The notes under the pieces were generated by a model. The model saw nothing but the letters and a program-made list of their open reading frames with translations, was not told where the DNA came from and ran no database searches. 64,000 bases of DNA, from NCBI GenBank assembly GCA_017526785.1, contig JAFXQV010000004.1:62001-126000 (forward strand), read 5' to 3'. The position numbers and the translations under genes were made by a program. This document shows, in pieces, positions 1 through 64,000 of this stretch (positions are counted from its first letter, which is position 1; each line of letters starts with the position of its first letter). The stretch comes from Oscillibacter sp. GTDB lineage: Bacteria; Bacillota; Clostridia; Oscillospirales; Oscillospiraceae.

Positions 1-624
1 GCGCTGCTGCGTCAACACGGATTCGCGCCCGGCAAGAGCGGCGGCCAGACCCGGCGCGCGTTAGAGGACGAACTGCGCCGCGACGGAATCGCGCCGTTGT
101 TGCGCGAACTCCGCGCCGTCGACCCCGACGCCGCCGCGCGGATTCACCCCGCCGACGAAAAGCGCGTCCTCCGCGCCTTGGAGGTCTACCGTGAGACCGG
201 AACCACGATTACGGCGCACAATGCCGCCACGCGTTCCCTGCCGCCGCGCTACCGCGCCGTTTGGCTGGGTCTGCGTTACCGCGACCGCGACGAGATGAAG
301 GCCGCCTTAGACCGCCGCGTAGACCGCATGATGGAGGCCGGACTGCTGGAAGAAGTCCGGGTACTCGCGGCGCGCGTGCCGCGTGACGCCACCGCGCTGC
401 AGGCTATCGGGTACAAGGAACTCCTGCCCGTACTCGACGGCGAAAAGACATTAGCGGATGGCGTCGCGGAGGTCAAACTTCGTACCCGGCAGTACGCCAA
501 ACGCCAGTTGACGTGGTTCCGGCGCAACCGGGACATTTACTGGCTGGAACGCTGGGAGGGGCGGGATTTTTCAGAGATAGTCCGAGTTTCGACAGATTAT
601 TGCTTAGGGAATGGCGTATGCTAA
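1..624 (+). CDS. miaA: tRNA dimethylallyltransferase MiaA, C-terminal part (5' end outside window)
   Basis: The reading frame is open from base 1, so the N-terminal P-loop half lies upstream of the window. The visible part carries the family's conserved blocks: DPDAAARIHPADEKRVLRAL, the segment around GYKELLPVL, and the terminal RTRQYAKRQLTWFRR. MiaA transfers a dimethylallyl group to A37 of tRNAs that read UNN codons, in the cytoplasm. The gene is followed after about 117 bases by hfq, the usual miaA-hfq order in many bacteria. The gap contains a short GC hairpin near 627-647 that lacks a T-run. The true start cannot be seen; the first ATG/TTG inside the window is internal. Confidence 0.93.
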   Translation, partial: ALLRQHGFAPGKSGGQTRRALEDELRRDGIAPLLRELRAVDPDAAARIHPADEKRVLRALEVYRETGTTITAHNAATRSLPPRYRAVWLGLRYRDRDEMKAALDRRVDRMMEAGLLEEVRVLAARVPRDATALQAIGYKELLPVLDGEKTLADGVAEVKLRTRQYAKRQLTWFRRNRDIYWLERWEGRDFSEIVRVSTDYCLGNGVC

Positions 625-741
625 GAGCGCGGACAGGCTGTCCGCGTCGCGCGCCGTTCCGGACGGACGCCGTACGGGAGAGGTACCCCGTACCGCGTGC
701 GCCCGGTCACGGGGCGACAAACAGAAAAAGGAGTGTTAGAC

Positions 742-978
742 ATGCAGAGTAAGGCCAATTTACAGGAACTTTTCCTCATCCGCGCAAGGCGCGACAGAAT
801 CCCCGTCACGATGTTTCTCATGAACGGCTTTCAGATGCGCGGCGTCATTGTGGGCTTTGACGCCTGCGCCGTGATTCTCGACAGCGAGGGACGCCAGCAG
901 ATGATTTACAAGCACGCCATTTCCACCATTGCCCCGTCCCGCCCCGTCGACCTGACCGAAGAGCGCGCCTTCCTGTAA
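742..978 (+). CDS. hfq: RNA chaperone Hfq
   Basis: This is a 78-residue Sm-like protein. The start is the ATG at 742, preceded by an AAAAAGGAG ribosome site. A longer in-frame extension upstream is not conserved. Sm1 is visible as [20 protein letters not shown] and Sm2 as the Hfq hallmark YKHAISTI near residues 53-60. Known role of the family: a hexameric ring that binds small RNAs and A/U-rich mRNA tails. The protein ends soon after the Sm core, so it lacks the long flexible tail of the enterobacterial protein, as is typical in Firmicutes. It sits directly after miaA and before a hairpin at 997-1018. Confidence 0.96.
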
Positions 979-996
979 CAGTCCAAACCTACATCA

Positions 997-1025
997 CCGG
1001 AGCGCTTACACGCTCCGGACTTTCC
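997..1025 (+). terminator. Hairpin after hfq, possible terminator
   Basis: CCGGAGCG (997-1004) pairs with CGCTCCGG (1011-1018) around a 6-base loop, and ACTTTCC follows. The T-run is short, so termination may be partial. The next gene begins at 1052. Confidence 0.5.
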
Positions 1026-1051
1026 GTAAAGACAGAGAGGGGTTACCGCCG

Positions 1052-2317
1052 ATGAATATACGCCGCTGGGGGTTCCGCCTGCTGGTGGGGCTTCTGGTAC
1101 TGTTGTCGTCCGCTTACTTCGGAATCCAGACCTACCGCTACTTCAACGACCCCTTTTCGACCACGGTCGTGTGGCTCTACCGCTTCGAGGAGAGCATGGA
1201 ACTCAACGGCTGTGTCGTCCGGGAGGAGGCCGCGCTGTCGGTCGACGACGGAACGTTTGTGCGTCCGAGCCGCGCCGAGGGCGAGCGCGTTTCCGTACAC
1301 GGCACCGTGGCACGGGTCTACGCCGACCAAGACGCACTGCGCATGCAGACGGAGACCGACGCCGTGGAGCGCCGTCTGGAGCAGTTGCGCTACGCGCGGG
1401 CGACCGCCACGGGCGCGGAGGTGTCGTCCCGGATGGACAGCCAGATTTTCCAGACGATGTTACAGCACCGCGCCGCGCTGTCGGCGGGGCGTCTCGACCG
1501 CGCCCGCGAACAGGGGGCGCAACTCCGCGCCATGGTTCTAAAGCGCGACTATACCCCCGTCGACCTCGACAACCTTGACATGGAAATCGGGGAACTGGAA
1601 AGCTCGCTGGAATCCCTGCGGAGCCGCGCCGAAACGGAAGTGCGCAAAATCACGGCGTCGCGCTCGGGGCTGTACTCGTCGGTCACGGACGGCTACGAGG
1701 CGCTTCTGACCCCCGCGACACTCCCGCAACTGACGCCCTCCGCCTTCGCGGCGCTTGACCCCGACGAACAAGCGATATCCCCCGCCGGGAAACTCGTCTA
1801 CGGCGACTACTGGTACTACGCCGCCATACTGCCCATGGAGCGCGTGGAGGAACTGCGCACCCGCGCGGCGTCCGCGTCGCCGGTACTGCGCTTCACGCGG
1901 GGCATTGACCGCGACTTTCCGGTGGAACTCTACATGGTCGGCAACGAGGAGAACGGACGCGCCGTCGTGGTGCTGCGCTGCAAGGAGTATCTGTCCGACG
2001 TTACGCTGCTGCGGCGTCAAAAGGCGTCGCTGGTCTTCGGGAGCATGGAGGGACTGCGCGTGCCGCGCGAGGCGTTGCGCCTGTTGCCGTCCGAAAACGA
2101 CGAGGAAAAGCGGCAGGGGCTTTACTGCGTCATGGGCACGGAAGCCCGCTTCAAGCCCGTGGAGGTGTTCTATACCGGGGAGGACTTCCTGTTAGTCCGC
2201 GCCACGCCCGACGCGTCCGACGTTCTGCGCGTCCGCGCCGGGGACGAGGTCATCGTGCGCGCCCATGACCTCTACGACGGCAAAATTGTCACCGGGCTTG
2301 GGGACATCGCGCGTTGA
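1052..2317 (+). CDS. HlyD-like membrane protein, function unknown
   Basis: This 421-residue protein has an N-terminal membrane anchor at about residues 8-25, a charged coiled-coil-like middle (about 90-190, rich in E, R, A and L) and a C-terminal beta-rich part ending near a VRAGDEVIV segment. The overall plan resembles periplasmic-adaptor (HlyD-family) proteins that in Clostridia often sit between hfq and yggS/sepF. No transporter partner is encoded nearby, so a role in export is not shown. The start ATG at 1052 follows GAGAGGGG. The location beside sepF and divIVA suggests an envelope function, but that is inference. Confidence 0.6.
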   Translation: MNIRRWGFRLLVGLLVLLSSAYFGIQTYRYFNDPFSTTVVWLYRFEESMELNGCVVREEAALSVDDGTFVRPSRAEGERVSVHGTVARVYADQDALRMQTETDAVERRLEQLRYARATATGAEVSSRMDSQIFQTMLQHRAALSAGRLDRAREQGAQLRAMVLKRDYTPVDLDNLDMEIGELESSLESLRSRAETEVRKITASRSGLYSSVTDGYEALLTPATLPQLTPSAFAALDPDEQAISPAGKLVYGDYWYYAAILPMERVEELRTRAASASPVLRFTRGIDRDFPVELYMVGNEENGRAVVVLRCKEYLSDVTLLRRQKASLVFGSMEGLRVPREALRLLPSENDEEKRQGLYCVMGTEARFKPVEVFYTGEDFLLVRATPDASDVLRVRAGDEVIVRAHDLYDGKIVTGLGDIAR

Positions 2318-2348
2318 GTAGAAACAGAACGAAAGGGAAGTGGGACGA

Positions 2349-3059
2349 ATGTCCATTGCGGAAAATATCGCGCTTGTGCGGGAGAAAATCGACGCCGCCG
2401 CGCGTGAAACCGGCCGGACAGGCCGTGACATTACGCTGGTCGGCGCCAGCAAGATGAACGACGCCGCCGCCTGCCGGGAGGCCGTCGCGGCGGGCATTGA
2501 CGCGCTCGGGGAAAACCGCGTGCAGGAAATGCGCGCCAAACTCTCCGAAAACGCCTATGACGGCGCGCCGTTGCACTTTATCGGGCATTTACAGCGCAAC
2601 AAGGTTCGGCAGGTCGTCGGGCATGTCGCGCTGATACAGTCCGTGGGTTCGGAGGCGCTTCTGCTGGAAATCGAGAAGGCCGCCGCCGCGCTCAATCTCG
2701 TACAGCCGATTCTCTTGGAGGTCAACGTCGCCGGGGAGGAGGCAAAGAGCGGCTTCGCGCCGCCGGAAGTCTTCCGCGCGGCGGAACTCTCCCTGACACT
2801 GCCCCACGTCCGGACGCGCGGACTGATGACAATTCCGCCTTTCGACGCCGACCGCCCCGCGACTTTGCGTTATTTTCAGGAAGTCCGCGCTCTTTCTGTT
2901 GACATTGGGGAAAAATTGTTTCATAATGTGTCCATGGAACTTTCCATGGGGATGAGCGGCGACTATCAGGACGCCGTTCGCGCCGGGGCGACGATGGTTC
3001 GTGTTGGCACGGCCATTTTCGGGGCGCGCCATTATGATACAGGAGGGGCTACGTCATGA
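2349..3059 (+). CDS. yggS: YggS family pyridoxal phosphate homeostasis protein
   Basis: This is an alanine-racemase-fold PLP-binding protein of about 236 residues. The PLP lysine is expected at about K35 in the segment LVGASKMND, equivalent to VSKT in the family. Other family blocks are GENRVQEM, HFIGHLQRNK, SVGS and the C-terminal MGMSGDYQ...RVGTAIFG. The family buffers PLP and has no known substrate. I prefer the ATG at 2349, with GAAAGGGAAG about 9 bases upstream, over the GTG at 2340. The stop overlaps the sepF start by four bases (ATGA), which suggests translational coupling. The yggS-sepF-divIVA order is classic for Firmicutes division clusters. Confidence 0.94.
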   Translation: MSIAENIALVREKIDAAARETGRTGRDITLVGASKMNDAAACREAVAAGIDALGENRVQEMRAKLSENAYDGAPLHFIGHLQRNKVRQVVGHVALIQSVGSEALLLEIEKAAAALNLVQPILLEVNVAGEEAKSGFAPPEVFRAAELSLTLPHVRTRGLMTIPPFDADRPATLRYFQEVRALSVDIGEKLFHNVSMELSMGMSGDYQDAVRAGATMVRVGTAIFGARHYDTGGATS

Positions 3060-3502
3060 ACATCTTCGAGGAGCTGAAAAAGATTACTCACCCCTACGCC
3101 GACGAGGACGACTACCCCTACGCCGACGAGGACGAGGACACCGACACGCGCGGTCGCGGCTCCTATGAGGAACGCCGCCCCAGAGGCGAGGAGCGCCGGG
3201 GCAAGCTGGTCAGCATCCCCGCCACCACCGAGTTAAAGGTCATGCTGATGAAACCGGAACGTTTCGAGAACGCCGTGGAAATCGCCGACCACCTGAAAGG
3301 CCGCCGCACGGTCGTGCTGAATCTGGAATCCACGCCCCGGGAGGAGGCCAAGCGCCTTTTGGACTTCCTCTCCGGCGTGACCTATGCCGGGGAGGGCAAA
3401 ATCAAGAAAATTGCCGCCAACACGTACTTAATCACCCCCTACCATGTGGAAATCGAGGGGGACTTGATTGACGAACTGGAAAGCAGCGGCCTGTACTTCT
3501 GA
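3056..3502 (+). CDS. sepF: Cell division protein SepF
   Basis: This 148-residue protein has a short N-terminal membrane-targeting region. A very acidic stretch follows (residues about 13-30), with YADEDDYPYADEDEDTD as a near-duplicated unit. The conserved SepF core comes after it, starting near LMKPERFENAVEIADHLK and including RRTVVLNLE and DFLSGVTYA. SepF binds FtsZ at the septum, anchors it to the membrane and forms rings. It overlaps yggS by 4 bases and precedes divIVA. The internal acidic duplication is slightly unusual but sits in the known variable linker. Confidence 0.95.
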   Translation: MNIFEELKKITHPYADEDDYPYADEDEDTDTRGRGSYEERRPRGEERRGKLVSIPATTELKVMLMKPERFENAVEIADHLKGRRTVVLNLESTPREEAKRLLDFLSGVTYAGEGKIKKIAANTYLITPYHVEIEGDLIDELESSGLYF

Positions 3503-3532
3503 CCGCTTATCAATCGTAGAGAGGGATACATT

Positions 3533-4120
3533 ATGCTTAAACCACAGGAAATCTCCGGTCACACTTTCACAAAGACCCTCTTGGGCGGGTACTCCGTCTC
3601 CGCCGTGGGGGAGTTTTTAGACGCCGTCGCCGAGGACTACTCCGCGCTCCACAACGAGAACGCTACCCTGAAATCGAAACTCAAGGTCATGGTCGACAAG
3701 GTGGAGGAGTACCGCGCCACAGAGGAGGCCATGCGTTCGGCGTTACTCGCCGCCCAGAGAACCGCCGAGGGAATCCTGAAAGACGCCGAGACCCGCCGCG
3801 ACGAAATCCTTGCCAACGCCAGCGACGAAGCGTTAGCGCGCCGCGACGACTGCCGCCGGGAAGTGGCCGAGTTAGAGGAGCGTATGCGCCGGGCGCGTAC
3901 GGAAATGGCGCGGTTCATCGCCTCCGGGCGCGAACTGTGCGCGCAGGAGATAAAATTTCTGGAACAGTTGCCCCAAATGCAGGTCAATGTGACGCTTCCG
4001 GCAGAGGACGAGGCGGAGGCAACGCCCGAACCCGCGCCCGCCGAGCCGGACACAAAGCCCGAACCCGACGCGCCGCATTTGGATGAACTCAAGTTCGGAC
4101 AGTCGCTCAAAAAGGACTGA
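3533..4120 (+). CDS. divIVA: DivIVA domain protein
   Basis: This 195-residue protein has the DivIVA N-terminal module (LKPQEISGHTFTKTLLGGYS), in which the loop that senses curved membrane lies near residues 10-20. A long coiled coil follows (about 35-140). The C-terminal tail is rich in proline and acidic residues (TPEPAPAEPDTKPEPD), then LDELKFG. The family scaffolds division or pole proteins at negatively curved membrane. The start ATG at 3533 follows AGAGAGGG. It is the last gene of the yggS-sepF-divIVA run. No lspA follows, unlike in some relatives. Confidence 0.9.
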   Translation: MLKPQEISGHTFTKTLLGGYSVSAVGEFLDAVAEDYSALHNENATLKSKLKVMVDKVEEYRATEEAMRSALLAAQRTAEGILKDAETRRDEILANASDEALARRDDCRREVAELEERMRRARTEMARFIASGRELCAQEIKFLEQLPQMQVNVTLPAEDEAEATPEPAPAEPDTKPEPDAPHLDELKFGQSLKKD

Positions 4121-4144
4121 TAATTGAAACCCATTGGGAAAGTG

Positions 4145-4173
4145 GGGCAACTTCAGCGATGAGGTTGCCCTTT
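4145..4173 (+). terminator. Weak hairpin after divIVA
   Basis: GGGCAAC (4145-4151) pairs with GTTGCCC (4164-4170) around a 12-base loop, followed by TTTC. It is positioned between divIVA and radC and could be a weak terminator. Confidence 0.35.
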
Positions 4174-4209
4174 CATGGTTTGTCAAATTCCCGAAGGAGC
4201 GGAAGCGTT

Positions 4210-4897
4210 ATGGAACAGACCCCGCGAACCCGTTTGGAGGATATCCGGCAGCGCTTTGTCGAGGTCGGCATTGAGGCGCTTTCTGCGGAGGAAACATTAG
4301 AACTGTTGTTCGGTTACGTTTCCCCGCGGAGGGACAACCGCGCCCTGTCGGAAACTCTCCTGAACAAATACGGCTCCCTTCGGCACCTGTTGTCGTCGTC
4401 CGCCAGACAGTTGCAGACCGTGGGCGGCCTGAGCGAATCCGCCGCCGTGTTTCTGGCACTCGTCGGGCAGACCGGACGCCAGATGTTTTTGGAGACCATG
4501 GAACACTGTCCGGACATGTTCGCGGAGGCCTGCGACATCGGGCGGTATTTCATGGAACTGGTACGCGGACAGCCGTGGGAAACGCTTCACGTACTCTGTT
4601 TGAGCGGGAACACGTTTCTGTCCTGCTACTCGCTCGACGGCGCGGACCCCGTGCGGCGTACGCTGGAGGCCGCGCTGGAATCCGCCGCGGACGGCGTGGC
4701 GGTATGCCGCCGTCAGACGGGCGGGCTTGTCGCGCTGTCGGAACACGACCGCGCGCTGTCGCAAAAACTCCGGGCGGCACTCGATACCGTCCGGGTCTCG
4801 CTGCGTGACTACGTCGTTGTGTCCGACGACGACTTTGTGTCGCTGTCGGAGACCGTTTCCGGGAACGCTTCGGGAAAGAATGGAGTGATAATCGACT

Positions 4898-4911: not shown

Positions 4912-6855
<1,944 letters not shown>

Positions 6856-19435: not shown

Positions 19436-19475
19436 TGTATTGTTGTCAGTTGGTGGAACTGAATATTATGTCGTG

Positions 19476-19566
19476 GAGAAGTCGCCTAGTTGGTCGAGGG
19501 CGCATGATTGGAAATCATGTAGGCTCCTAAAGGGTCTCGAGGGTTCGAATCCCTCCTTCTCCGCCA
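19476..19566 (+). tRNA. tRNA-Ser, anticodon GGA
   Basis: The acceptor stem GGAGAAG (19476-19482) pairs with CTTCTCC (19556-19562). Discriminator G and an encoded CCA follow (19563-19566). The anticodon stem CATGA/TCATG encloses the 7-base loop TTGGAAA with anticodon GGA at 19510-19512. A long variable arm marks a class II tRNA, as expected for serine. The T arm contains GGTTCGAATCC. It reads UCC/UCU codons. Confidence 0.97.
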
Positions 19567-20347: not shown

Positions 20348-20408
20348 AATCGGCGTGGAGCTGGTAAATATTGGCACAAAGTACAATGTGGGTACGTCGT
20401 GATACAGC

Positions 20409-20448
20409 GCCTGCCGGGAGAACCAGTCCCGGCGGGCGTGTATTTTTG
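20409..20448 (+). terminator. Leader hairpin before the recombinase, possible attenuator
   Basis: An 11-bp GC-rich stem (20409-20419 with 20427-20437, one G-T pair, 7-base loop) is followed by GTGTATTTTTGGG. It lies between the promoter and the start codon, where it could terminate early transcripts. Confidence 0.55.
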
Positions 20449-20463
20449 GGAAAGGAGGCTGGC

Positions 20464-21939
20464 GTGTATGGAACTGTCGGGATAGTGGCGGCTATGTACC
20501 TGCGCAAGAGCCGCGCCGAGGAGGGCATGGACACGGCGGAGATACTGCGGCGGCACCGTGAGACGCTAAACGAGTTCGCGGCGCGGAACGGCATCCGGGT
20601 GCGGGAAGTCTTTCAGGAGGTGAAGTCCGGCGGGAGCCTCTACGCACGCCCGGAGATGATACGGCTTTTAGAGGCCGTGGAGGCCGGACGCTATCAAGCT
20701 GTACTCTGCATGGACATTGACCGCCTGTCCAGAGGTGAGACGTGGGAGCGTGGACAAATCTGGGCGACGTTCAAAAGAGCCGGGACGCTGATTGTCACGC
20801 CGGGGAAGACGTATAACTTTTCCGAGGAATCAGACGAACTCATGGTGGAGCTTCGCGGCCTGTTCGCGAATTACGAGTACAAAAAAATCCGAGAGCGCCA
20901 GCAGCGCGGCATAGCGCGCGCCGTTCAAGAGGGGCAGTTTCTTGCCCCGACGCCCTACGGATATCGGAAACGTGTCATTGACCACAGACACACGCTGGAA
21001 ATTTACGAGCCGGAAGCAAGGTTTGTCCGCATGATGTTCGACTTATACAGGTCTGGCGTCGGAAGCGACGCGATAGCGGCACGGCTGAACGAGGCCGGAG
21101 CGCGTCCGCGTCGGGCGGAAGTGTTCAGTAAGACGGCCGTGTTTAACATCCTGCGAAACCCTGTGTACGCGGGGAAAATCGTCTGGAATCAGACGCAATG
21201 GACTGACGGAAAACGCCGGAAGCAGGCTCTCCCGCGTCCGGAATCCGAATGGACGGTCACGGACGGGATTCACCCCCCGATTATCAGTCAGGAACTCTTT
21301 GACGAGTGCAAGGCTATTAGGAAAGCCCGCTGGCGTCCGGCGTGTTTCGACGGCACGATAAAATCTCCGCTCGCGGGGCTTGTCCGCTGTAAGCGTTGCG
21401 GGAAGTATATGCAGCGTCAGCAGAACAGCGGATATTACTATCTGCGCTGTAGTCGGCGGCGTTGTTCCACGCTGGCAAACTATGCGGATGTGGAAAGGGC
21501 TGTCATTGAGGGTTTGCGGGACATCCTATGCGCGCTTGAAATGGAACCGGGTCAACAGCCCGCTGACGCGCTGGCAAAGGCGCAGGCGCGCCTTGCGTCG
21601 GCGCGGAACTCCATTGCGGCGGAGAAGCGGAAACAGGCGCGGCTTTACGATTTTCTGGAAAGCGGCACATACTCCGAAGCAGTCTTCCGGGAACGGATGG
21701 ACGCCGCAAACGGGCGCATGGCCGCGCTGAAATCACGGGAGAAGGAGGCGTTGCAGGAGATGGAAAGGCTTTCCGCGCAAGATAAAAGAAAACAAGCCGA
21801 TGGAATCCACGCGCTTTTGCAAGTCTATGAAAGCGCGGACGGTGCCGGGAGAAACGCCCTCCTGCAGGGGGTTGTGGATGTAATCTGGTACGAGCGCAAC
21901 GGGCGCGAGCCGTTTGCTCTCGAAATTTTTTTGAAGTGA
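20464..21939 (+). CDS. Large serine recombinase
   Basis: This 491-residue protein has the resolvase catalytic domain (about 8-155) with the active-site serine in YLRKS and the DIDRLSR motif. A recombinase domain (about 170-280) follows. Next comes a zinc ribbon with cysteine pairs CKRCG and CSRRRC (about 325-350), and then a coiled coil (about 380-460). Such enzymes integrate or excise elements by serine-linked double-strand exchange. The start is GTG 20464, with AAGGAGG five bases upstream. The ATG at 20468 is out of frame and stops after five codons. No phage or conjugative genes flank it, so it is an isolated or stripped element. Confidence 0.92.
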   Translation: MYGTVGIVAAMYLRKSRAEEGMDTAEILRRHRETLNEFAARNGIRVREVFQEVKSGGSLYARPEMIRLLEAVEAGRYQAVLCMDIDRLSRGETWERGQIWATFKRAGTLIVTPGKTYNFSEESDELMVELRGLFANYEYKKIRERQQRGIARAVQEGQFLAPTPYGYRKRVIDHRHTLEIYEPEARFVRMMFDLYRSGVGSDAIAARLNEAGARPRRAEVFSKTAVFNILRNPVYAGKIVWNQTQWTDGKRRKQALPRPESEWTVTDGIHPPIISQELFDECKAIRKARWRPACFDGTIKSPLAGLVRCKRCGKYMQRQQNSGYYYLRCSRRRCSTLANYADVERAVIEGLRDILCALEMEPGQQPADALAKAQARLASARNSIAAEKRKQARLYDFLESGTYSEAVFRERMDAANGRMAALKSREKEALQEMERLSAQDKRKQADGIHALLQVYESADGAGRNALLQGVVDVIWYERNGREPFALEIFLK

Positions 21940-22460: not shown

Positions 22461-23357
22461 TCAGGACAACAGAGCGTTGATGTCCTCTACTTCCAAGTCC
22501 TGCAACGCCCAGTTGACGCCGTAGCCGACGACTTTTGCCAAGTCCCGGACTTGCGCGTCGATATCGCGCGGCGTCACCATGAGGCCGTCGTGACCGTTCC
22601 GCAACGCCGTTTCGTCGAGTTCGTGTCCGTGTTCCTCCAGCAAGTCCGCCGCCAGTGTCACGGCGTCGACAACCGTCGGCACGCCAATCGCGAGAACCGG
22701 CACGCCGACGCTTTGTCTGTCCAGCGCGGCGCGGTGGTTGCCGACGCCGGAACCTGGCAAGATTCCGGTGTCCGACAACTGCACCGTGTTGCAAAGGCGC
22801 GCCCTGCGGCGGGACGCTAACGCGTCAATGGCAATCACGAGCGCGGGGCGTATCCTGTCGACGAGCGCCCGGACGGCTTCCGCCGTCTCGACGCCCGTGG
22901 TACCCAGTACGCCCGTCCGGAACGCCGCCACGGGGCGGAATCCCGCGAACTGGCGCGGCATCGCCTCAATTAAATGCCGCGTGACCAGCACGCTTTCCGC
23001 CGCCAATGGCCCCACGGAATCCGGCGTCATGTCGGGGTTGCCCAACGCGATAACCAGCGCGGCACCGTCCGTTTCGGGAAGAAGCGCTTTCAACGCCCGT
23101 CCGGTTGCGCGTACGGCGCGGGCGAAAAAGTCCGGCGTACGCTTCCAGTACGCGGTCAAGTCCAGCGTGACGTACGTCCCGGCGGGACGCCCTAACGCCT
23201 GCTCCCCGCGCCTGTCCAGTATTTCTACTTTCGTGACCGGATAGCCCTCCGATTTGCGCTCCCGCGAACGGACGCCCGTCAAGCGCGTGGTGGCTTCGGC
23301 GCTCTCGCGCCAGAGTTCAAAGGCTTCCAGCGCCAAGTCCGTGCGTCTGTTGACCAT
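22461..23357 (-). CDS. gpr: GPR endopeptidase (spore germination protease)
   Basis: This is a 298-residue protein. Family blocks are RTDLALEAFE at the start (with the zymogen cleavage region), GNPDMTPDSVGPLAAESVLVTRH written here in part as GNPDMTPDSVGPL, then PGVLGTTG-like RTGVLGTTGVET, and ALASRR...NTVQLSDTGI...GVGN. GPR degrades small acid-soluble spore proteins during germination. The start ATG at 23357 has GGAAGGAGCG upstream; a longer frame extends into the leader but lacks family similarity. An unusual promoter, palindrome and hairpin lie upstream at 23447-23566. No SASP gene is visible in the window. Confidence 0.92.
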   Translation of the reverse strand: MVNRRTDLALEAFELWRESAEATTRLTGVRSRERKSEGYPVTKVEILDRRGEQALGRPAGTYVTLDLTAYWKRTPDFFARAVRATGRALKALLPETDGAALVIALGNPDMTPDSVGPLAAESVLVTRHLIEAMPRQFAGFRPVAAFRTGVLGTTGVETAEAVRALVDRIRPALVIAIDALASRRRARLCNTVQLSDTGILPGSGVGNHRAALDRQSVGVPVLAIGVPTVVDAVTLAADLLEEHGHELDETALRNGHDGLMVTPRDIDAQVRDLAKVVGYGVNWALQDLEVEDINALLS

Positions 23358-24920: not shown

Positions 24921-27554
24921 GTGAAACTCATGGTGCTTGACGGGAACAGTATCCTGAATCGGGCTTATCACGGCGTGGCTCCTCTGATAACCAAAGAGGG
25001 ACTGCATACGCAGGCCATTTTCGGCTTTCTGAACACGGTTCTCCCCATTGAAAACAGGCAGAGGCCGGAGGCGCTATGCGCGACGTTCGACGTACACGCG
25101 CCGACATTCCGCCACAAGGCCGACGCGGCCTACAAGGCCAACCGAAAGCCCATGCCCGACGATTTGCGGGAACAGGTTCCGGTATTGAAAGAGGTTCTCG
25201 ACGCGCTGAACATCCCGCGCTATGAGTTGGCCGGATACGAGGCCGACGACCTGATAGGCACCATTGCGCGGCGGTGTGAGGCGTCGGGCTGGGAGTGCGT
25301 GATTGTGACCGGAGACCGCGACATCCTACAGCTCATCAGCGACCGCGTGACGGTCTTACTGCTCTCCAGAGCGGGACCCGTTGAGATGAACCCGGCGACG
25401 TTCCGGGAGAAGTACGGCTTCCCGCCGGAGAACATCGTAGACCTGAAAGCGCTTATGGGCGACGCGTCGGACAATATCCCGGGCGTCGCGGGCGTCGGCG
25501 AAAAGACCGCCTCCGCGCTGATACAAGAGTATCAGACCATTGAAAACCTGTATCGGCGTCTGCCCGACATCGACGCGAAACCCGGCGTCATAAAAAAACT
25601 GACGGCGGGCGCGGACAGTGCCAGACATTCCTACTGGCTGGCGACAATCAAGACGGATGTTCCCATAGACTTCGCGCCGGAGGCGAATCTTCGGAGAGAA
25701 CCCGGTAGTAGTGCCTATGCGCTGTTCCAAAGATTGGAGTTCCACAGGCTGACGGAGCGCCTGCACCTGCAAGCGCCGCCGGAGGTCGTGCCGGACGCGG
25801 AACCCGTCGCGGCGACGGGCGACGTTGTGCCGCTCGCGGACATCGACGCCGTACGGGCGGCGCGGGAACGTCTGCGCGGCGCGGACGTGTTCGCAAGCAC
25901 GGACACACAGTTACAGCTTGTCGTACTTTGGCAGTCCGGCACCGCCTACGCGCTGGACGCGTCCGCGTTCCGGGGCGACTTCGACGCCGCACTGCGGACG
26001 CTCTTTGACGGCTCGCTGCCGCTGGTCGGACACGGCGTCAAGGACACTATGCGGGAACTGTCACAACACGGGGCGTCGCCCGACGGCTGGGCGGACGACA
26101 CTATGCTCATGGCGTACCTGCTCGACGCCACCGCCGGACAGTACGACCTCGACCGACTTTGCCGGAAATACGGCGGCTTCACAATCGCCCGGGCGGCGTC
26201 CGGCGACGGCGAACAGCTCTCACTACTGGACGCGCCCGCGACAGCGTGTTACAGTGACCTCGCGGCGGAGGCGGCCGCGCTGGAACGTCTCCGCGACATT
26301 CTGTCGCCCAAACTCCGCGACTGGAATCTGACGGAACTGTACCAAAGCGCGGAAATGCCGTTGTGCCGCGTCCTCGCCGACATGGAGCAGGCCGGATGTA
26401 CGGTAGACCGTGACGCGCTTTCGGCGTTCGGGCAACTCCTGTCGGACAGAATCCGCGAACAGGAAAAGGAAATCTATGCACTCGCCGGACATGAATTTAA
26501 TATCAATTCCCCGAAACAGCTTGGCACCGTTCTTTTCGACGAGTTACAGCTTCCGCACGGCAAAAAAACCAAAACGGGCTGGTCAACGAACGCGGATGTA
26601 TTGGACAATCTCCGGAACGAGTCCGAACTTGTCGCGGCGGTCTTGGACTACCGTCAGTATACGAAACTCAAGTCCACGTACGCCGACGGACTGTTAAAGG
26701 CAATCGGCGCGGATGGGCGCGTCCGGACATCGTTCCAAATGACCGTCACCGCGACGGGGCGTCTGAGTTCCACGGAACCGAATTTACAGAACATTCCCAC
26801 GCGTACCGACTTGGGAAGCGAAATCCGGAAAATGTTCCTGCCGTCGCCGGGAAATGTGCTTGTTGACGCCGACTACTCCCAAATTGAGTTGCGGCTTCTG
26901 GCGCACATGTCCGGGGACGAGGCCATGCAACGGGCGTTTCTCGACGGCACCGACATTCACACCGCCACCGCCGCGCAGGTGTTCCGCGTCGCGCCGGGGG
27001 ACGTGTCGCCGGAAATGCGCCGTCACGCGAAAGCGGTCAACTTCGGCATTGTGTACGGAATCTCGGCGTTCTCGCTGTCGCGTGACATCGGCGTGAGTGT
27101 CGCCGACGCGAAAGCCTATATGGACGGCTATTTCGCGGCGTTTCCGGGCGTCCGGCGCTATATGGACAGCGTCGTACAACAGGCGCGGGAACGCGGCTAT
27201 GTCGAAACGCTCTTTCACCGCCGCCGCGAACTGCCCGAACTGTCGTCGCCACAGCACACGCGCCGGGCGTTCGGGGAGCGCGTCGCGCTGAATATGCCCG
27301 TACAGGGTACGGCGGCCGATATCATGAAACTGGCCATGTGCGCGGTCTGGAAGCGTCTCCGGGCGGCGTGTCCCGCCGCGAAACTCGTGCTACAGATTCA
27401 TGACGAGTTAATCGTAGACTGTCCGGCGGAACAGGCGGAACAGGTGGCGGAAATTCTCCGCGAGGAGATGGAAGGCGTCGCGGCGCTGTCCGTGCCGCTG
27501 ACCGCCGACGCCCATTGGGGGCGGAACTGGCTGGAAGCAAAAGAGGGGGCGTAA
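24921..27554 (+). CDS. polA: DNA polymerase I
   Basis: This 877-residue protein has three parts. The 5'-3' exonuclease domain (about 1-290) shows EADDLIGT, VTGDRDILQL and GDASDNIPGVAGVGEKTA. The middle 3'-5' exonuclease-like domain (about 305-470) has lost the DxE proofreading signature: the site reads FASTDTQLQ, as in Bacillus-type enzymes. The polymerase domain shows motif A (DADYSQIELR), motif B (RRHAKAVNFGIVYGIS) and motif C (QIHDELIVD). It fills gaps in repair and removes Okazaki primers. The start is GTG 24921 after GGGAGGCGG. It is followed after one base by rimI. Confidence 0.97.
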   Translation: MKLMVLDGNSILNRAYHGVAPLITKEGLHTQAIFGFLNTVLPIENRQRPEALCATFDVHAPTFRHKADAAYKANRKPMPDDLREQVPVLKEVLDALNIPRYELAGYEADDLIGTIARRCEASGWECVIVTGDRDILQLISDRVTVLLLSRAGPVEMNPATFREKYGFPPENIVDLKALMGDASDNIPGVAGVGEKTASALIQEYQTIENLYRRLPDIDAKPGVIKKLTAGADSARHSYWLATIKTDVPIDFAPEANLRREPGSSAYALFQRLEFHRLTERLHLQAPPEVVPDAEPVAATGDVVPLADIDAVRAARERLRGADVFASTDTQLQLVVLWQSGTAYALDASAFRGDFDAALRTLFDGSLPLVGHGVKDTMRELSQHGASPDGWADDTMLMAYLLDATAGQYDLDRLCRKYGGFTIARAASGDGEQLSLLDAPATACYSDLAAEAAALERLRDILSPKLRDWNLTELYQSAEMPLCRVLADMEQAGCTVDRDALSAFGQLLSDRIREQEKEIYALAGHEFNINSPKQLGTVLFDELQLPHGKKTKTGWSTNADVLDNLRNESELVAAVLDYRQYTKLKSTYADGLLKAIGADGRVRTSFQMTVTATGRLSSTEPNLQNIPTRTDLGSEIRKMFLPSPGNVLVDADYSQIELRLLAHMSGDEAMQRAFLDGTDIHTATAAQVFRVAPGDVSPEMRRHAKAVNFGIVYGISAFSLSRDIGVSVADAKAYMDGYFAAFPGVRRYMDSVVQQARERGYVETLFHRRRELPELSSPQHTRRAFGERVALNMPVQGTAADIMKLAMCAVWKRLRAACPAAKLVLQIHDELIVDCPAEQAEQVAEILREEMEGVAALSVPLTADAHWGRNWLEAKEGA

Positions 27555-29750: not shown

Positions 29751-30905
29751 CTACGGATACAACTCCCCCGACATCAGGCGCGGTAAAAGGGTGTCGCGGA
29801 GTTCTGATAATTTTCTTGATTCTATCCGGTTACTAATGATTGAATCGTAAAGTGGTTGCATAAATGCGCTAATTTCCATATAGTCACCGGAAGACGGAAC
29901 AATTACCTCCGCTTTATCGAGTTCATCACGCTTGATATGTCCCATAGTGGTGGCTTTATCAGCGGCAACCGCTATGAAATGATGGAGATAATAGTTTGTC
30001 CATGCGTAAATAAACCACTTGTCAAATTGCGTTGACGTTACTTTGAACAGATGTTGATTTAATCCGCAGTCACCGCCACACCAAAAATCAACAAGCAAAC
30101 TTCCCGACCAAGAAAAAATAATGTCTCCGTCATGCACAATATATTCGGGCTTTATATCCGCAGTGCAACGCTCGGAACTGCTATCGGTCATCCCATGTCT
30201 AAGTTCCTTGATTTTGAGAACGGGAAGCCCCGTCTCCCCTGCAATGGGACGATACTTTTGCATAGCAAGGCCGTTCAAGTAATGGGCAATAGAAGACAGG
30301 TTGCTTTTATACCAGCCTACAGGCAGTGATTCCCCAATGAGGAAGTTTTTGTTGAAAATCGCCTGCGCCTGTTGCGATAAATTCTCATTTATGCGCGTAT
30401 TGAGTTCGATTTTATCGTCAAGGGCGCATAGAAGTTCAGAAATTTGCTTCTGCACTGACTTGTCAGGAACATTGACCTCTATACAATGAAAGGTATCTCT
30501 TGTAATGGTATCAAATACCGTTCCATGTACATTGTTTTTCAGCAATCTGACATTGTACTTGAGCAAATAATATAAAAATTCGCTCTCTACAATTTCAGGT
30601 TTTGCTCTCAACCCATAACACGACTGATTAAAGGCCATAGGATATGGAATCATAGCCAGTTCGCCCACGGTTCCTCTTGCGGATATGATAATATCATCTC
30701 TTTGCAATAAGGTTGTGGAACTGTGTTTTAGGCCTTCCTCTGTAATTGATTTTTCCGCAGTATAGACATATCGTCTATCGTCGTTAAAATCCTTCACAGA
30801 AAGCCATGGAATATTTCCGTTCCAATAGTTGGGGACACTTGTCTTAGGTGTACCTCCTCCTATAATGTCCATAATCTCGGATAACCGATATTGCATGTTC
30901 ATCAC
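29751..30905 (-). CDS. hsdS: Orphan type I restriction specificity subunit HsdS
   Basis: This is a full-length 384-residue HsdS with two target-recognition domains and two conserved helices. TRD1 starts YRLSEIMDIIGGGTPKTSVP. The central repeat is DDKIELNTRINENLSQQAQAI, written here in part as LDDKIELNTRINENL. TRD2 starts after SLPVGWYKSNLSS. The end is SRKLSELRDTLLPRLMSGE. HsdS selects the bipartite DNA site for HsdM/HsdR. No hsdM or hsdR is present, so it has no partner here. The gene is clearly more AT-rich than its neighbours, a sign of transfer. The start is GTG 30905, ATG 30902 or ATG 30896; GGGAG lies upstream. Confidence 0.92.
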   Translation of the reverse strand: MMNMQYRLSEIMDIIGGGTPKTSVPNYWNGNIPWLSVKDFNDDRRYVYTAEKSITEEGLKHSSTTLLQRDDIIISARGTVGELAMIPYPMAFNQSCYGLRAKPEIVESEFLYYLLKYNVRLLKNNVHGTVFDTITRDTFHCIEVNVPDKSVQKQISELLCALDDKIELNTRINENLSQQAQAIFNKNFLIGESLPVGWYKSNLSSIAHYLNGLAMQKYRPIAGETGLPVLKIKELRHGMTDSSSERCTADIKPEYIVHDGDIIFSWSGSLLVDFWCGGDCGLNQHLFKVTSTQFDKWFIYAWTNYYLHHFIAVAADKATTMGHIKRDELDKAEVIVPSSGDYMEISAFMQPLYDSIISNRIESRKLSELRDTLLPRLMSGELYP

Positions 30906-40938: not shown

Positions 40939-42006
40939 TTAGGCCGATTTTTTTAGATATATAGTGCCATCTGAGGCAATGCAGTATTCCACTGGCTTTT
41001 CGGCGGAATACAACGAGGTTTCAAATTTGTTTTCCAGTTCCTCGCATTCGTTCTCCATCAGATACATGATTGTCTGATTGACATCACGCGTCAGTCCCTC
41101 CGTGTCCACCTTTTTTCCGATTTTCGGCTTGAAGGCGGCTATTGCCATTTTCAGCGCGTTAAAATTGGCAATTAATTGTTTTTCGTACTTTCCAATATAC
41201 TTGTTTACATCATTTTCCACATAGCGCAAGTATTCGGAATCGTAGTTTTGGGAATAATAGACTTCCAGCAGATTTGCGGTCATGTAGAGTTGAATGGAGA
41301 GGTCCAGACACTGGCGGATTTGGAAAGCCTTTTCTACCGCCTGTTCTATATCGCCCGTTTTCGCGTTCTGTACGGTGGCATACAAGTCGTTGAGATAAAA
41401 TTCAACATCCTGAATCGCCGTTTTCCGTGTTCCCTGAAGGCTTTGAATCGTCGCGGCGCGTTGTTCGCTATGTGCCATCATGGACGCGAAGTTTTCGTAG
41501 GCGTACTTGACGAAATTGAGTTCAGACAAAAGCTCCGCCTTTTTGTCCCCGTACAAAAACGCCAGTATCTGGTCAATACTTTGCGTGATTCTGGTCATTT
41601 TCTGGTTAATCTCTGTGAGGAAATATTGAGACGTGACAATGGACATCGCCGCGAATCCCATCATAACAACCGCTTGTGTACTCAAGGGCTGAAAATGCGC
41701 GTGACCCGCGAACTTTCCGCCCTGCCCTCTAACCGTACTCATGTAGCCGCTGTCGTCCGCGAATTTCACCAGCTTATGCGGAACTCCGTCAGGCCACTTT
41801 GCGACATAGTAGGCGTCTTTCAACGTATTGGCCGCCACCATAGACGGAATCTGTTGATACAGGGCGGAAATTTGCCCCTTGCTGAATGCGGAAATCTCCA
41901 GCTTTTCATATTGCGTCGACATATCCGGCGAAAACGGGCTTTCATAAGGGAAAATCTGGCATTCCTTGTCGCCAAAATCCAGCCGGACAATATTTTCATC
42001 ATTCAT
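40939..42006 (-). CDS. Unrecognised coiled-coil protein, accessory-like
   Basis: This 355-residue protein belongs to no family that I recognise. Residues about 1-95 are mixed alpha/beta (starts NDENIVRLDFGDKECQIFPY). A hydrophobic amphipathic stretch follows at about 108-130 (STQAVVMMGFAAMSIVTSQYF). Then comes a long predicted coiled-coil helical region (about 130-320, with TEINQKMTRITQSIDQILAF). A short beta end (YCIASDGTIYLKK) closes the protein. The base composition is visibly more AT-rich than its neighbours, which suggests later arrival. It has a clear GAAAGGAGC ribosome site. It stands alone between spoIVB and ftsZ and lacks mobility genes nearby. Membrane-associated defence or toxin-like roles are possible but unproven. 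Confidence 0.75.
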   Translation of the reverse strand: MNDENIVRLDFGDKECQIFPYESPFSPDMSTQYEKLEISAFSKGQISALYQQIPSMVAANTLKDAYYVAKWPDGVPHKLVKFADDSGYMSTVRGQGGKFAGHAHFQPLSTQAVVMMGFAAMSIVTSQYFLTEINQKMTRITQSIDQILAFLYGDKKAELLSELNFVKYAYENFASMMAHSEQRAATIQSLQGTRKTAIQDVEFYLNDLYATVQNAKTGDIEQAVEKAFQIRQCLDLSIQLYMTANLLEVYYSQNYDSEYLRYVENDVNKYIGKYEKQLIANFNALKMAIAAFKPKIGKKVDTEGLTRDVNQTIMYLMENECEELENKFETSLYSAEKPVEYCIASDGTIYLKKSA

Positions 42007-58923: not shown

Positions 58924-58950
58924 GCGGATTTTGTCTGGACAAAAACGGCG

Positions 58951-59108: not shown

Positions 59109-59148
59109 CAGGAATACGGAAATTTCAGGCGCAAAGGGGCGTGACGGT

Positions 59149-61601: not shown

Positions 61602-64000
61602 TACGGAAACTGCTCGAACGCCGTACGCTTCGGCTGTCCATGATACTCGGCTCTCTGGTGGCGGCCTTGATTCTGCTGGGGGTGTTCCTCTACGCGCGGG
61701 TGGACACGCTTCTAAACGTCTACATGGAGGTGCAGGGCGAAAAGCAGGCCGAAACCCTCGCCGAACTGACCGAACGGCAGTTTCAGACAGAGTTAATCGC
61801 CCTCTACACGGTCGCCAGTGAACTCCCCCGCATTGAGGGCATGCGCGCCGACGCCCTCCGCGCCATCCAGAGCGCCGACTACGCCGGGAGAATCGGCGTA
61901 CAGCGCATAGACGGCAGTCCGTTCTACGGGGAGGTCTACAGCGCCGATGACTTCCCGTGTATCGAAAAGGCCGTCCACGGCGAAAACGCCATTTCGTTTT
62001 GTCCGGGAAAAGGCCTGATGTTCTGCGTTCCGGCCTTCCGTGACGACAATATTCTGTTCGTGGTCTACAGGCTCTACCCGGAAAGCGTACTCTTTGAGCG
62101 CTTCGGCGTCCAGAGTTACGGCGGGAGCGGGAGAACCCGTATCGCCGACGCCTCCGGGCGGGTCATCGTCACGTCCCTTCCGATATACTCCGACGCGACT
62201 TGGATTCTCCGGGAAAAGTCCGTCGAAACGGGCATTCAGGAACTGGAAAGCAGGCTCTACAATTCCGGGAGCGCGGCACTGTTCCGGCCTTCGAGTATCG
62301 GGGAAGTCATGCTCTACGCCGCCATGATTCACGGCAGCGACTACCACCTGATAGGTTACGTGCCGAAAACCGTCGTCATGCAGGGCGTACAGCATATCAG
62401 CCTCCTTGTTATCATGGTGTTTCTCATTCTGACGCTGACGGTATTCGCGGGGGGCTTCCTGCTGATTGGGCTGGAACGCAAGTCGCGGGAAAGTGACACG
62501 CTCCGCGAGGCGGCGCGTATCGCGGAGAAGTCCAGCGCCGCGAAAAGCGAGTTTCTCTCCAACATGTCCCACGACATCCGAACGCCCATGAATGCCATTA
62601 TCGGCTTTACAAATCTGGCGCTCCGGAACCCCGCAGACACGGAACGGGTCATAGAGTATCTGGGCAAAATTCAGGCGTCCTCCAGCCACTTACTGGCGCT
62701 GATTAACGACGTACTCGAAATGAGCCGCATTGAGAGCGGGAAAATTGAGCTTGACGAAACTTTATGCTCCCTGCCGGAAATCCTGCACGACCTCAATACC
62801 ATCATCGTCGGGCAGGTCGAGGCCAAGCAACAGGAACTGACCATGGACGCCGTGGACGTGGTCAACGAAAATGTGTACTGCGACAAACTGCGCCTGAATC
62901 AAGTGTTGCTAAACCTGTTGTCGAACGCGGTCAAGTACACGCCCGCCGGGGGGAAGATTTCCGTCCGGGTCATCCAGCGCACTGGCGAACACGACGGCTG
63001 CGCCGACTATGAACTCCGCGTGAAAGACAGCGGAATCGGCATGTCCCCGGAGTTTGCGAAAAAGGTCTTTGACGCCTTCGAGCGCGAGAAAACGTCGACC
63101 GTCAGCGGCATTCAGGGTACAGGCCTCGGCATGGCCATCACGAAGAGTATCATTGACCTGATGAACGGCTCCATCCGCGTGGAGACCGAACCCGGCAAGG
63201 GTTCGGAATTCATCGTGGACGTGTCCATGAAAGTCGAGACCTCCGGCGTGCCTGACCGCCACATCCCCGAACTCAACGGACTGCGGGCGCTGGTCGTCGA
63301 CGACGATTTCCACACCTGCGACAGCACCACGAAACTGCTGTCACAACTGGGCATGCGCTCCGACTGGACGCTCTCCGGGAAAGAGGCCGTGCTTCGCGCC
63401 AAGCACGCCCACGAGACCAAAGACCATTTCAAAGTGTTCCTGATTGACTGGAAACTCCCGGACTTGAACGGCATTGAGGCCGTGCGGCAGATTCGCGCGA
63501 TTGTTGGGGCGGATGTCCCCATTCTGCTTATGACCGCCTACGACTGGCCGTCCATCAAGGATGAGGCGATTGCCGCCGGGGTCAACGGCTTCTGCAACAA
63601 GCCGCTGTTCCTGTCGGAACTCCACAGCGCGATGATGCGCGTTGTCGGCAAGGCGGACGGCGCGGAAACCCGCCCCGAGGACAAGAACCCGCCCGCGAAC
63701 TTCGACGGACGCCGCCTGTTACTCGTCGACGATATCGAGATGAACCGTGAGATTGCCGCCGCCGTGCTGGAAATGAGCGGCTTCGAGGTCGAGGAAGCCC
63801 GCGACGGTACGGAGGCCGTGGAGAAAGTCACCAACGCCGCCCCCGGCTACTATGACGCCGTGCTGATGGACATTCAAATGCCCGTCATGAACGGCTACGA
63901 GGCGGCGCGGAAAATCCGGGCGTCGGACAGCCAGAACGCCGCAATCCCCATTGTCGCCATGACCGCCAACGCCTTTGACGAGGACAAGAAAGCCGCCTAC
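61598..64000 (+). CDS. Hybrid sensor histidine kinase with two receiver domains (3' end outside window)
   Basis: The 2403 bases are open to the window end (801 codons visible). The parts are membrane helix 1 (about 15-33), an extracellular sensor (about 35-265) and membrane helix 2 (about 268-290). HisKA follows with phospho-His325 in SHDIRTPMNAIIGF, then HATPase with N box (LNLLSNAVKY), G1 (DSGIGM) and G2 (GTGLGMA). Receiver 1 has Asp about 617 in LIDWKLPDLNG and receiver 2 has Asp about 758 in LMDIQMPVMNG. Both receivers keep their Asp. The start ATG 61598 overlaps the BMP gene by ATGA. It probably continues with the end of receiver 2 and perhaps an HPt domain. Confidence 0.95.
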   Translation, partial: MIRKLLERRTLRLSMILGSLVAALILLGVFLYARVDTLLNVYMEVQGEKQAETLAELTERQFQTELIALYTVASELPRIEGMRADALRAIQSADYAGRIGVQRIDGSPFYGEVYSADDFPCIEKAVHGENAISFCPGKGLMFCVPAFRDDNILFVVYRLYPESVLFERFGVQSYGGSGRTRIADASGRVIVTSLPIYSDATWILREKSVETGIQELESRLYNSGSAALFRPSSIGEVMLYAAMIHGSDYHLIGYVPKTVVMQGVQHISLLVIMVFLILTLTVFAGGFLLIGLERKSRESDTLREAARIAEKSSAAKSEFLSNMSHDIRTPMNAIIGFTNLALRNPADTERVIEYLGKIQASSSHLLALINDVLEMSRIESGKIELDETLCSLPEILHDLNTIIVGQVEAKQQELTMDAVDVVNENVYCDKLRLNQVLLNLLSNAVKYTPAGGKISVRVIQRTGEHDGCADYELRVKDSGIGMSPEFAKKVFDAFEREKTSTVSGIQGTGLGMAITKSIIDLMNGSIRVETEPGKGSEFIVDVSMKVETSGVPDRHIPELNGLRALVVDDDFHTCDSTTKLLSQLGMRSDWTLSGKEAVLRAKHAHETKDHFKVFLIDWKLPDLNGIEAVRQIRAIVGADVPILLMTAYDWPSIKDEAIAAGVNGFCNKPLFLSELHSAMMRVVGKADGAETRPEDKNPPANFDGRRLLLVDDIEMNREIAAAVLEMSGFEVEEARDGTEAVEKVTNAAPGYYDAVLMDIQMPVMNGYEAARKIRASDSQNAAIPIVAMTANAFDEDKKAAY

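What the first reader, a model, noticed from the sequence alone, without database searches (positions are those of the whole stretch)
1..64000. GATC tetranucleotide appears to be absent from the whole window
Reading all 64 kb, including block and line junctions, I found no GATC. At about 60% GC, chance predicts very roughly 230 copies (0.2 x 0.2 x 0.3 x 0.3 per position). Near misses such as GATA, GATG, GATT and ATCG occur throughout, and other 4-base palindromes (GTAC, CATG, CCGG, GCGC, TCGA, AGCT) are present. The absence also covers the acquired-looking pieces: the AT-rich hsdS (29751-30905), the serine recombinase region and the unrecognised gene at 40939-42006. Such a loss must act through codon choice genome-wide. 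It fits long selection by a GATC-cutting enzyme (DpnII/Sau3AI/MboI type, or a methyl-directed DpnI-like enzyme). Alternatively, GATC could be harmful as a modified or recognised site.
Basis: partly seen in the sequence, partly recalled or inferred. Interest (0 to 1): 0.88.

Follow-up and report, generated by a model that had tools for sequence, protein, structure and literature searches.

The report
Genome purged of many restriction sites
This gut bacterium has lost almost every copy of GATC, and of about fourteen other short DNA words that bacterial cutting enzymes recognise, which looks like an extreme footprint of defence enzymes acting on their own host's genome.

Summary
Confirmed: the window holds 0 GATC (154 expected by Markov model, 180 +/- 11 by synonymous codon shuffling). 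The loss is genome-wide: 6 of about 1,286 expected in the 509 kb examined (22% of the genome).

GATC is not alone. About fifteen recognition-type words are nearly gone, among them CTAG, CCWGG, GGNCC, GDGCHC, AAGCTT, AGTACT, CACGTG and GGCGCC; of 3,812 non-palindromic hexamers only the six GDGCHC members fall below O/E 0.3. Seven related species share such a multi-word purge; 74 other sampled genus members do not. Gene-word matches: DpnII/GATC, Eco47II/GGNCC, EcoRV/GATATC in a relative. A relative that kept the GATC methylase but lacks the nuclease has GATC at O/E 0.40. A resident prophage is purged too.

Best reading: restriction-site avoidance pushed close to extinction by several type II systems. 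Known in kind, extreme in depth and number. Against it: 3 of 6 GATC-free genomes show no DpnII; one gene-word match failed; cytosine-methylase counts are not raised in the clade; enzymes for most of the missing words were not found or could not be searched.

The parts
1..64000 (.). Whole window: no GATC on either strand (the word is its own reverse complement); also 0 AAGCTT, AGTACT, ATGCAT, CACGTG, CAGCTG, GTTAAC, and 3 CCWGG, 3 GDGCHC, 1 GGCGCC, 1 GACGTC, 1 TTCGAA
   Evidence: some of these single-word expectations are small in the window alone (GTTAAC about 4-5, ATGCAT 3-7)
19475..19566 (+). tRNA-Ser gene; holds the window's only CTAG, at 19486
20371..21939 (+). Serine recombinase gene (cassette-chromosome/XisF-like); 0 GATC, 5.1 expected
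22467..23357 (-). Gene matching the protein (taken for gpr, germination protease; label recalled) that stands beside the GATC methylase in relatives G003 and G019; here it has no restriction system beside it
   Evidence: (G000:C2:84467-85357)
24921..27554 (+). DNA polymerase I gene, used as phylogenetic marker
29751..30905 (-). Type I restriction specificity subunit gene hsdS, G+C 42%; 0 GATC, 4.5 expected; not the GATC enzyme
40939..42006 (-). Unrecognised gene, G+C 46%, no Pfam match; 0 GATC, 2.8 expected

Best explanation
Restriction-site avoidance pushed close to extinction. The genome encodes a two-gene DpnII-type restriction-modification system: a Dam/DpnM-like methylase that should mark GATC and a DpnII-like endonuclease that should cut unmarked GATC. 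Each new GATC is a small liability, because a copy that is not methylated in time is cut by the cell's own enzyme; purifying selection removes it, mostly by synonymous change. The same process acts at once on other type II sites, so GATC is one member of a purge of about fifteen words, and six related species show purges of the same kind with overlapping word sets. Shown here: the absence, its spread over the 22% of the genome examined, its restriction to recognition-type words, its limit to one clade among the genus members sampled, and the DpnII and Eco47II genes. Inferred: the enzymes' specificities and activity, that self-cutting is the selective agent, and that most other missing words also have (or lately had) an enzyme.
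For: DpnII plus Dam-type methylase 14 bases apart in this genome. GATC 6/1,286. DpnII is in 4 of 86 genus genomes; 3 of those 4 are GATC-free, as are 3 of the 77 sampled without it (Fisher p 0.0009, not corrected for kinship). Only recognition-type words are affected: 11 of 53 palindromic hexamers below O/E 0.1 against 6 of 3,812 non-palindromic ones, all six members of GDGCHC; CCWGG 0.04 but CCSGG 1.16, GCWGC 0.21 but GCSGC 1.03. Eco47II-family endonuclease with C5 methylase in G000 and GGNCC at 0.08; EcoRV-family endonuclease in G070 and GATATC 0/16 there, against 123/117 in G000. G003 keeps the methylase but has no DpnII and has GATC at 148/367. Two of the five surviving CTAG lie in tRNA genes that make up 395 of 509,429 bases, and a third at a CRISPR repeat-spacer junction. 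Resident prophage: GATC 0/59, CCWGG 0/51. A codon-redraw model regains about 7% of a word after 3% fourfold divergence, so words at 0-5% suggest enzymes active now or until lately.
Against: G009, G068 and G070 are GATC-free without a DpnII hit; an assembly gap is plausible for G009 and G068 (they also lack the neighbouring gene) but not shown, and G070 has that gene. G080 has DpnII but GATC at 0.81. G003's 0.40 is not unique: 6 of the 74 non-clade members are below 0.5 without DpnII. G019 has an EcoO109I-family enzyme, yet RGGNCCY is at 0.71 there. Cytosine-methylase matches are not raised in the clade: 1-5 match rows per genome against 0-13 in 17 other genus members. Only DpnII, Eco47II and one MmeI-like enzyme were found in G000 (type I hsdS aside), fewer than the missing words; other methylase classes were not counted genome-wide. 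Whether G003 regained or retained its GATC is undecided. Methylation and cutting were not measured.
Confidence: 0.8

Rival explanations
1. Selection from other cells' enzymes: the lineage trades DNA within a population whose strains together carry many type II systems, and a genome (like its phages) keeps mainly DNA free of all those sites. The purge then reflects the population's enzymes more than the resident ones.
For: More missing words than enzymes found in G000; GATC-free genomes without DpnII; purged prophage; PMC4687349 proposes a similar reason for GATC avoidance in DpnI strains (passage read).
Against: Gene-word matches within single genomes (GATATC with EcoRV in G070); no exchange was measured; the enzyme inventory of G000 is incomplete, so the excess of words is not established.
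Confidence: 0.12
2. Mutational loss: a modified base in GATC (for example m5C) mutates it away, without selection.
For: AATC and GATT are more common relative to the rest of the genus than the other one-step neighbours (ratio 1.71, next 1.24), and of the 40 words that aligned clade relatives have at GATC sites of G003, 9 are AATC and 2 GATT, against 7 GGTC.
Against: The methylase is of the Dam N6-adenine type, which gives no deaminating cytosine; survivors sit in tRNA genes (CTAG); G003 keeps the methylase and yet has GATC; about fourteen other words of different make-up are lost as well.
Confidence: 0.04
3. A general aversion to palindromes (hairpins, DNA structure) instead of enzymes.
For: Palindromic hexamers (GATC and CTAG cores left out) pooled are at O/E 0.38-0.69 in the seven clade members; but also 0.49-0.90 in the other genus members.
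Against: Many palindromes are untouched in G000 (GATATC 1.05, ACGCGT 1.00, TTGCAA 1.04, CGTACG 0.93); the lost sets differ between relatives; words with a W centre are lost while their S forms are not.
Confidence: 0.02
4. Another GATC enzyme, such as a DpnI-like nuclease that cuts methylated GATC or a MutH/Sau3AI-type nuclease, does the selecting.
For: PMC4687349 reports GATC avoidance in 38 of 42 genomes with DpnI-like genes (passage read); could apply to G070, G009 and G068.
Against: No PF02976 in any clade genome; in G000 a DpnII gene suffices. PF06044 was not searched.
Confidence: 0.02

Closest known systems
DpnII-type GATC restriction-modification system (Streptococcus pneumoniae DpnII; MboI, MjaIII kin, names recalled)
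   Same: DpnII-family endonuclease and DpnM/Dam-type methylase side by side; best solved relative of the methylase is DpnM, 2dpm, E 1e-57
   Different: No second methylase gene between or in the 14-base gap of the pair in G000; the G080 operon region has a further methylase-like ORF (likened to DpnA from memory)
Avoidance of type II restriction sites in host genomes (Rusinov et al. 2015, PMC4687349, passages read)
   Same: Word-specific under-representation tied to orthodox type II systems; GATC and CTAG are named outliers there
   Different: That survey calls a site avoided at O/E 0.78 or less; here about fifteen words are at about 0-0.15 at once, in one clade
Avoidance of host restriction targets by plasmids and phages (Shaw et al., PMC10359461, passages read; PMC6286503, search listing only)
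   Same: Mobile DNA avoids targets of host systems; the G000 prophage does so strongly
   Different: Here the chromosome itself is purged to a similar degree for GATC and CCWGG
GATC-free phages such as phiX174 (PMC5014478, abstract start seen)
   Same: Complete lack of GATC
   Different: A few-kilobase phage genome there, a 2.3-Mb bacterial genome here

Membership tests
DpnII-type restriction-modification system | DpnII-family endonuclease (PF04556) | tested here: met
   E 1.3e-101, over the cut-off, no stops inside
DpnII-type restriction-modification system | Adjacent Dam/DpnM-type adenine methylase (PF02086, TIGR00571) | tested here: met
   E 9.9e-55 and 6.9e-76; genes 14 bases apart on one strand
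DpnII-type restriction-modification system | Second methylase (DpnA) as in the pneumococcal operon (recalled; not in all members) | tested here: not met
   Only two genes, 14 bases apart, in G000; the genome has one PF02086 gene. A distant PF01555-type gene was not excluded
DpnII-type restriction-modification system | Cuts unmethylated GATC and methylates it | not testable with these tools
   Needs enzyme assay or methylome
Restriction-site avoidance in a host genome | The word is rarer than composition and codon usage predict | tested here: met
   0/154 and 0/180 in the window, 6/1,286 in 509 kb
Restriction-site avoidance in a host genome | Specific to recognition-type words, not to all words or all palindromes | tested here: met
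Restriction-site avoidance in a host genome | A cognate system is present in the genome | tested here: inconclusive
   Met for GATC and GGNCC in G000 and GATATC in G070; not found for GATC in G009, G068, G070; RGGNCCY in G019 fails; most other words untested
Sau3AI/MutH-type system | PF02976 domain in the genome | tested here: not met
   No match in G000; 1 of 86 in the genus, G104
DpnI-type methyl-directed system | PF06044 domain in the genome | not tested

The most novel reading that the evidence does not exclude
The clade lives in a regime in which the chromosome is held free of about fifteen restriction words at the same time, with the set of forbidden words turning over between species faster than neutral drift would allow (CCWGG absent in G019 but at half of expectation in its close sister G009). 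Forbidden-word spectra of genomes would then be a readable record of the enzymes a lineage meets, perhaps including those of neighbours with which it trades DNA, and a further force on codon choice beside mutation and translation.
Probability: 0.3. Interest if true: 0.86.

Novelty: new variant of a known kind. Interest (0 to 1): 0.72.

Why it matters
Site avoidance is usually a statistical tilt. Here it is nearly absolute, for many words at once, in one small clade of an otherwise ordinary genus. That is a natural experiment on how costly a cell's own restriction enzymes are: under a two-state mutation-selection-drift balance (recalled model, my inference), O/E of 0.005 means a scaled selection strength near 5 on every single site. 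Pairs such as G003/G019 (nuclease absent or present beside the same methylase) and G009/G019 (CCWGG common or absent) could time the purge and the rebound, which the 2015 survey guessed to take of the order of a hundred million years (passage read). In practice such genomes would escape DpnII-, MboI- or HindIII-based library methods, and forbidden-word profiles might help to assign prophages and contigs to hosts.

Tried and rejected
MutH/Sau3AI as cause: rejected for the clade, no PF02976 match in its seven genomes. Cytosine deamination: disfavoured, although AATC/GATT are the most enriched neighbours. General palindrome aversion: rejected. CTAG as a separate novelty: CTAG is low across the genus (156/925 in 74 others; the column headed rest73 holds 74 loci) and in most genomes (PMC4687349, passage read), though lower still here, 5/354. 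CGATCG as a whole-genome proxy for GATC: imperfect, since G030 has 7 CGATCG but GATC at 85/76, and G002 has 5. 16S rRNA, to see whether RNA genes keep GATC: no match in this assembly. Gapped dyad words: some are low, but codon periodicity was not controlled, so they are not claimed. Is G003's GATC regained or retained: 30 sites align to clade relatives; of 12 that also align to outgroups, 6 have GATC in some outgroup, against 62 of 328 one-step-neighbour sites; outgroup rows 57/220 against 413/10,786: leans to retention or regain at favoured sites, undecided. CCWGG in G009: only 4,506 bases aligned with G019, one informative site, which looks regained; at the fourfold divergence of 0.09 the redraw model predicts about 0.2, observed 0.51: unexplained. 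EcoO109I/RGGNCCY in G019: mismatch. 'More methylases in the clade': not borne out for the C5 family. Motif scan for methylases in 409 kb found one MmeI-like gene besides rRNA-type or spurious hits; its pattern misses D12 genes such as DpnM. Solved structures for the DpnII protein: none matched. No structure prediction was made.
Full report
Observation. The window holds no GATC. Its own trinucleotide content predicts 153.9 copies and base composition 231.8. Shuffling synonymous codons within 59 called genes predicts 180 +/- 11, minimum 155 in 200 shuffles; most expected copies (139.5 of 180) lie in the frame NNG-ATC, so the loss is one of codon choice. That single CTAG, at 19486, lies inside the tRNA-Ser gene at 19475-19566.

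Extent. The window is part of a 2.34-Mb assembly in 38 contigs, G000. In 509,429 bases of it, window included (22%), GATC occurs 6 times against 1,286 expected and CTAG 5 times against 354. CGATCG occurs once in the whole assembly. The six surviving GATC all lie in called genes in the frame GAT-C, to which the codon shuffle gives about one copy in six (noticed after the fact). Two of the genes look like a recombinase and a KAP-type NTPase (by eye, no search).

The enzyme. The genome has one D12-type methylase (PF02086, E 9.9e-55; Dam family TIGR00571; best solved structure DpnM, 2dpm) and, 14 bases from it on the same strand, a 284-residue DpnII-family endonuclease (PF04556). They lie at C18:17169-18823, outside the window. 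No PF02976 (MutH/Sau3AI) gene was found in this genome.

Relatives. The held genus has 86 genomes including this one. DpnII is found in 4 of 86: G000, G019, G027, G080. GATC was counted in 81 of the 86: this genome and one region each of 80 others (3.2-20 kb), most of them centred on polA; five genomes were not sampled. Six are GATC-free, at O/E 0.00-0.011 with all stretches pooled: G000, G009, G019, G027, G068, G070. G003 is at 148/367 = 0.40. The other 74 range from 0.42 to 1.27, median 0.91, with 6 below 0.5. In a tree of 73 polymerase I proteins, G000, G009, G019, G068, G070 and G003 form one group on a long stem (support 100); the order of G003 and G070 at its base is unresolved. G027 has no polA in its assembly; its DpnII and methylase are 91% and 90% identical to those of G000, with the same neighbours.

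Where the enzyme is missing. G009, G068 and G070 are GATC-free without a detectable DpnII. In G019 and G003 the methylase sits beside a gene that I take for gpr; that gene is absent from the G009 and G068 assemblies too, so an assembly gap is plausible for those two. It is not shown for G070, which has the gene. G003 keeps the methylase (73% identical), about 60 bases from that gene, and has no DpnII anywhere in its assembly; it is the one clade member with many GATC. Its ratio, 0.40, is however close to that of the lowest non-clade members. G080 has DpnII but GATC at 0.81, as a recent arrival would. Among 61 DpnII-bearing loci found in the species-level genome collection, GATC ratios run from 0.00 to 1.07, and only two are below 0.1, both from this clade.

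The larger pattern. In the first 409 kb, GATC is one of many missing words. Of 53 palindromic hexamers with at least 15 copies expected, 11 are below O/E 0.1 and 17 below 0.3: AAGCTT 0/62, AGTACT 0/60, ATGCAT 0/23, CACGTG 1/86, GGCGCC 15/412, CAGCTG 2/53, GTTAAC 1/25, TTCGAA 4/89, GACGTC 8/158, GTGCAC 5/53, CTCGAG 8/82 and others. Of 3,812 non-palindromic hexamers six are below 0.3, and they are the six non-palindromic members of GDGCHC. Among five-base words CCWGG is at 0.04 and GGNCC at 0.10-0.15; GCWGC (0.21) and GASTC (0.25) are reduced less; CCSGG, GCSGC and GAWTC are not. With GATC, CTAG, CCWGG, GGNCC and GDGCHC this makes about fifteen words at O/E of roughly 0.15 or less. They read like a catalogue of type II sites (recalled). 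Untouched palindromes such as GATATC (1.05) and ACGCGT (1.00) exclude a general aversion.

Clade-wide. With at least 5 copies expected and O/E under 0.15 as the test, the seven clade members have 8-16 of 34-54 palindromic hexamers missing and the other 74 genus members 0-3 each; non-palindromic controls are 0-10 of 2,360-3,930 in the seven. Sample sizes differ, so I repeated it with single regions of 14-20 kb: 3-6 of 22-24 in three blocks of this window; 4-8 of 17-25 in seven regions of G009, G019, G027, G068 and G070; 0 and 2 of 21-23 in two regions of G003; mean 0.39 of 16.4 in 72 other genus members, at most 3; and, of 59 DpnII-bearing loci of other lineages, 0 or 1 except one with 4 of 18 (L174). 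So G003 does not stand out at that size, and the trait is not wholly unique outside the genus. The word sets overlap but differ: CCWGG is gone in six of seven and at 0.51 in G009; GATATC 0/16 in G070 and 1/8 in G068 only; GRGCYC in G000, G003, G027 and G068; CYCGRG in G027 and G070. Endonuclease genes match in three cases (DpnII/GATC and Eco47II/GGNCC in G000, EcoRV/GATATC in G070) and fail in one (EcoO109I in G019, RGGNCCY 0.71); of the three other candidate partner proteins scanned, two had no Pfam match and one only a winged-helix domain.

Mechanism. The best reading is ordinary in kind: a methylase that lags leaves sites open to the cell's own endonuclease, so each site carries a cost, and selection removes it through silent changes. 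Pointers to selection: two of five surviving CTAG lie in tRNA genes (395 of 509,429 bases) and one at a CRISPR repeat-spacer junction; the clade member without the nuclease has GATC; and a prophage (terminase, primase-helicase and integrase families) lacks GATC (0/59) and CCWGG (0/51) and has 16 of 24 testable palindromic hexamers missing, while of 50 related viral stretches of 8 kb or more (of 80 retrieved) 38 keep GATC at O/E 0.5 or more, 10 are at 0.1-0.5 and 2 have none. A redraw of synonymous codons suggests that a released word regains about 7% of its number after 3% fourfold divergence, so words at 0-5% point to enzymes active now or until lately. I could not show that G000 has enough enzymes: two C5 methylases (one with Eco47II, one in the prophage), one D12 (DpnM), one MmeI-like enzyme, a prophage adenine methylase and the type I hsdS were seen; other classes were not counted genome-wide. 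C5-methylase match rows are 1-5 in the seven clade genomes and 0-13 in 17 other genus members, so that family gives no sign of a larger arsenal.

What is new. Restriction-site avoidance, GATC avoidance and CTAG scarcity are in print (PMC4687349 and PMC10359461, passages read; PMC6286503, search listing only). In four searches of the paper library (listings and abstract starts seen, two papers opened in part) I saw no report of a genome with about fifteen such words near zero, nor of this clade. That is a limited search of an open-licence library. I rate it a new variant of a known kind.

Noticed in passing
G009 pieces L086, L251-L253 versus G019 pieces L089, L173, L259: CCWGG is 84/166-170 in G009 but 0/72-74 in its close sister G019 (polA dS 0.14) and near zero in five other clade members; a neutral redraw predicts about 0.2, so the difference is faster than that model.
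   Followed up: partly
L267 (G019:C35): EcoO109I-family endonuclease beside a C5 methylase, but RGGNCCY is not depleted in the 37 kb of G019 at hand: recent arrival or other specificity.
   Followed up: partly
L020:9402-9941 (G000:C33): Array of 8 direct repeats that looks like CRISPR; one of the genome sample's five CTAG sits at a repeat-spacer junction.
   Followed up: partly
L240 (G003:C54:1-20000): Stretch with lower G+C (0.516) that holds 10 of the 12 CCWGG seen in 128 kb of G003; looks like recently acquired DNA not yet purged.
   Followed up: no
L291 (G000:C18:40001-60000): Prophage more deeply purged of palindromes than its host: 16 of 24 testable hexamers at O/E under 0.15.
   Followed up: partly
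L167 and L169 (G070:C18, C81): EcoRV-family endonuclease with D12 methylase, and a second D12 methylase next to a protein that looks like an HNH nuclease (by eye), in the GATC-free genome that lacks DpnII.
   Followed up: partly
L005:2915, L013:9006, L014:4152, L016:2687, L016:16607, L021:11669: All six surviving GATC of the G000 sample are in the frame GAT-C, though codon shuffling puts most expected copies in the frame NNG-ATC.
   Followed up: no
L174 (uncultured Clostridia, rabbit-named isolate Lapin-005): DpnII-bearing locus outside the genus with 4 of 18 testable palindromic hexamers missing; possible second purged lineage.
   Followed up: no
L328, L329 (viral contigs): Viral stretches with no GATC (0/36 and 0/45) although at 42% G+C, unlike most relatives.
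   Followed up: no
L171 (G104:C52): The only MutH/Sau3AI-family gene in the genus, beside a C5-type methylase ORF; GATC is at 0.42 in that genome.
   Followed up: no
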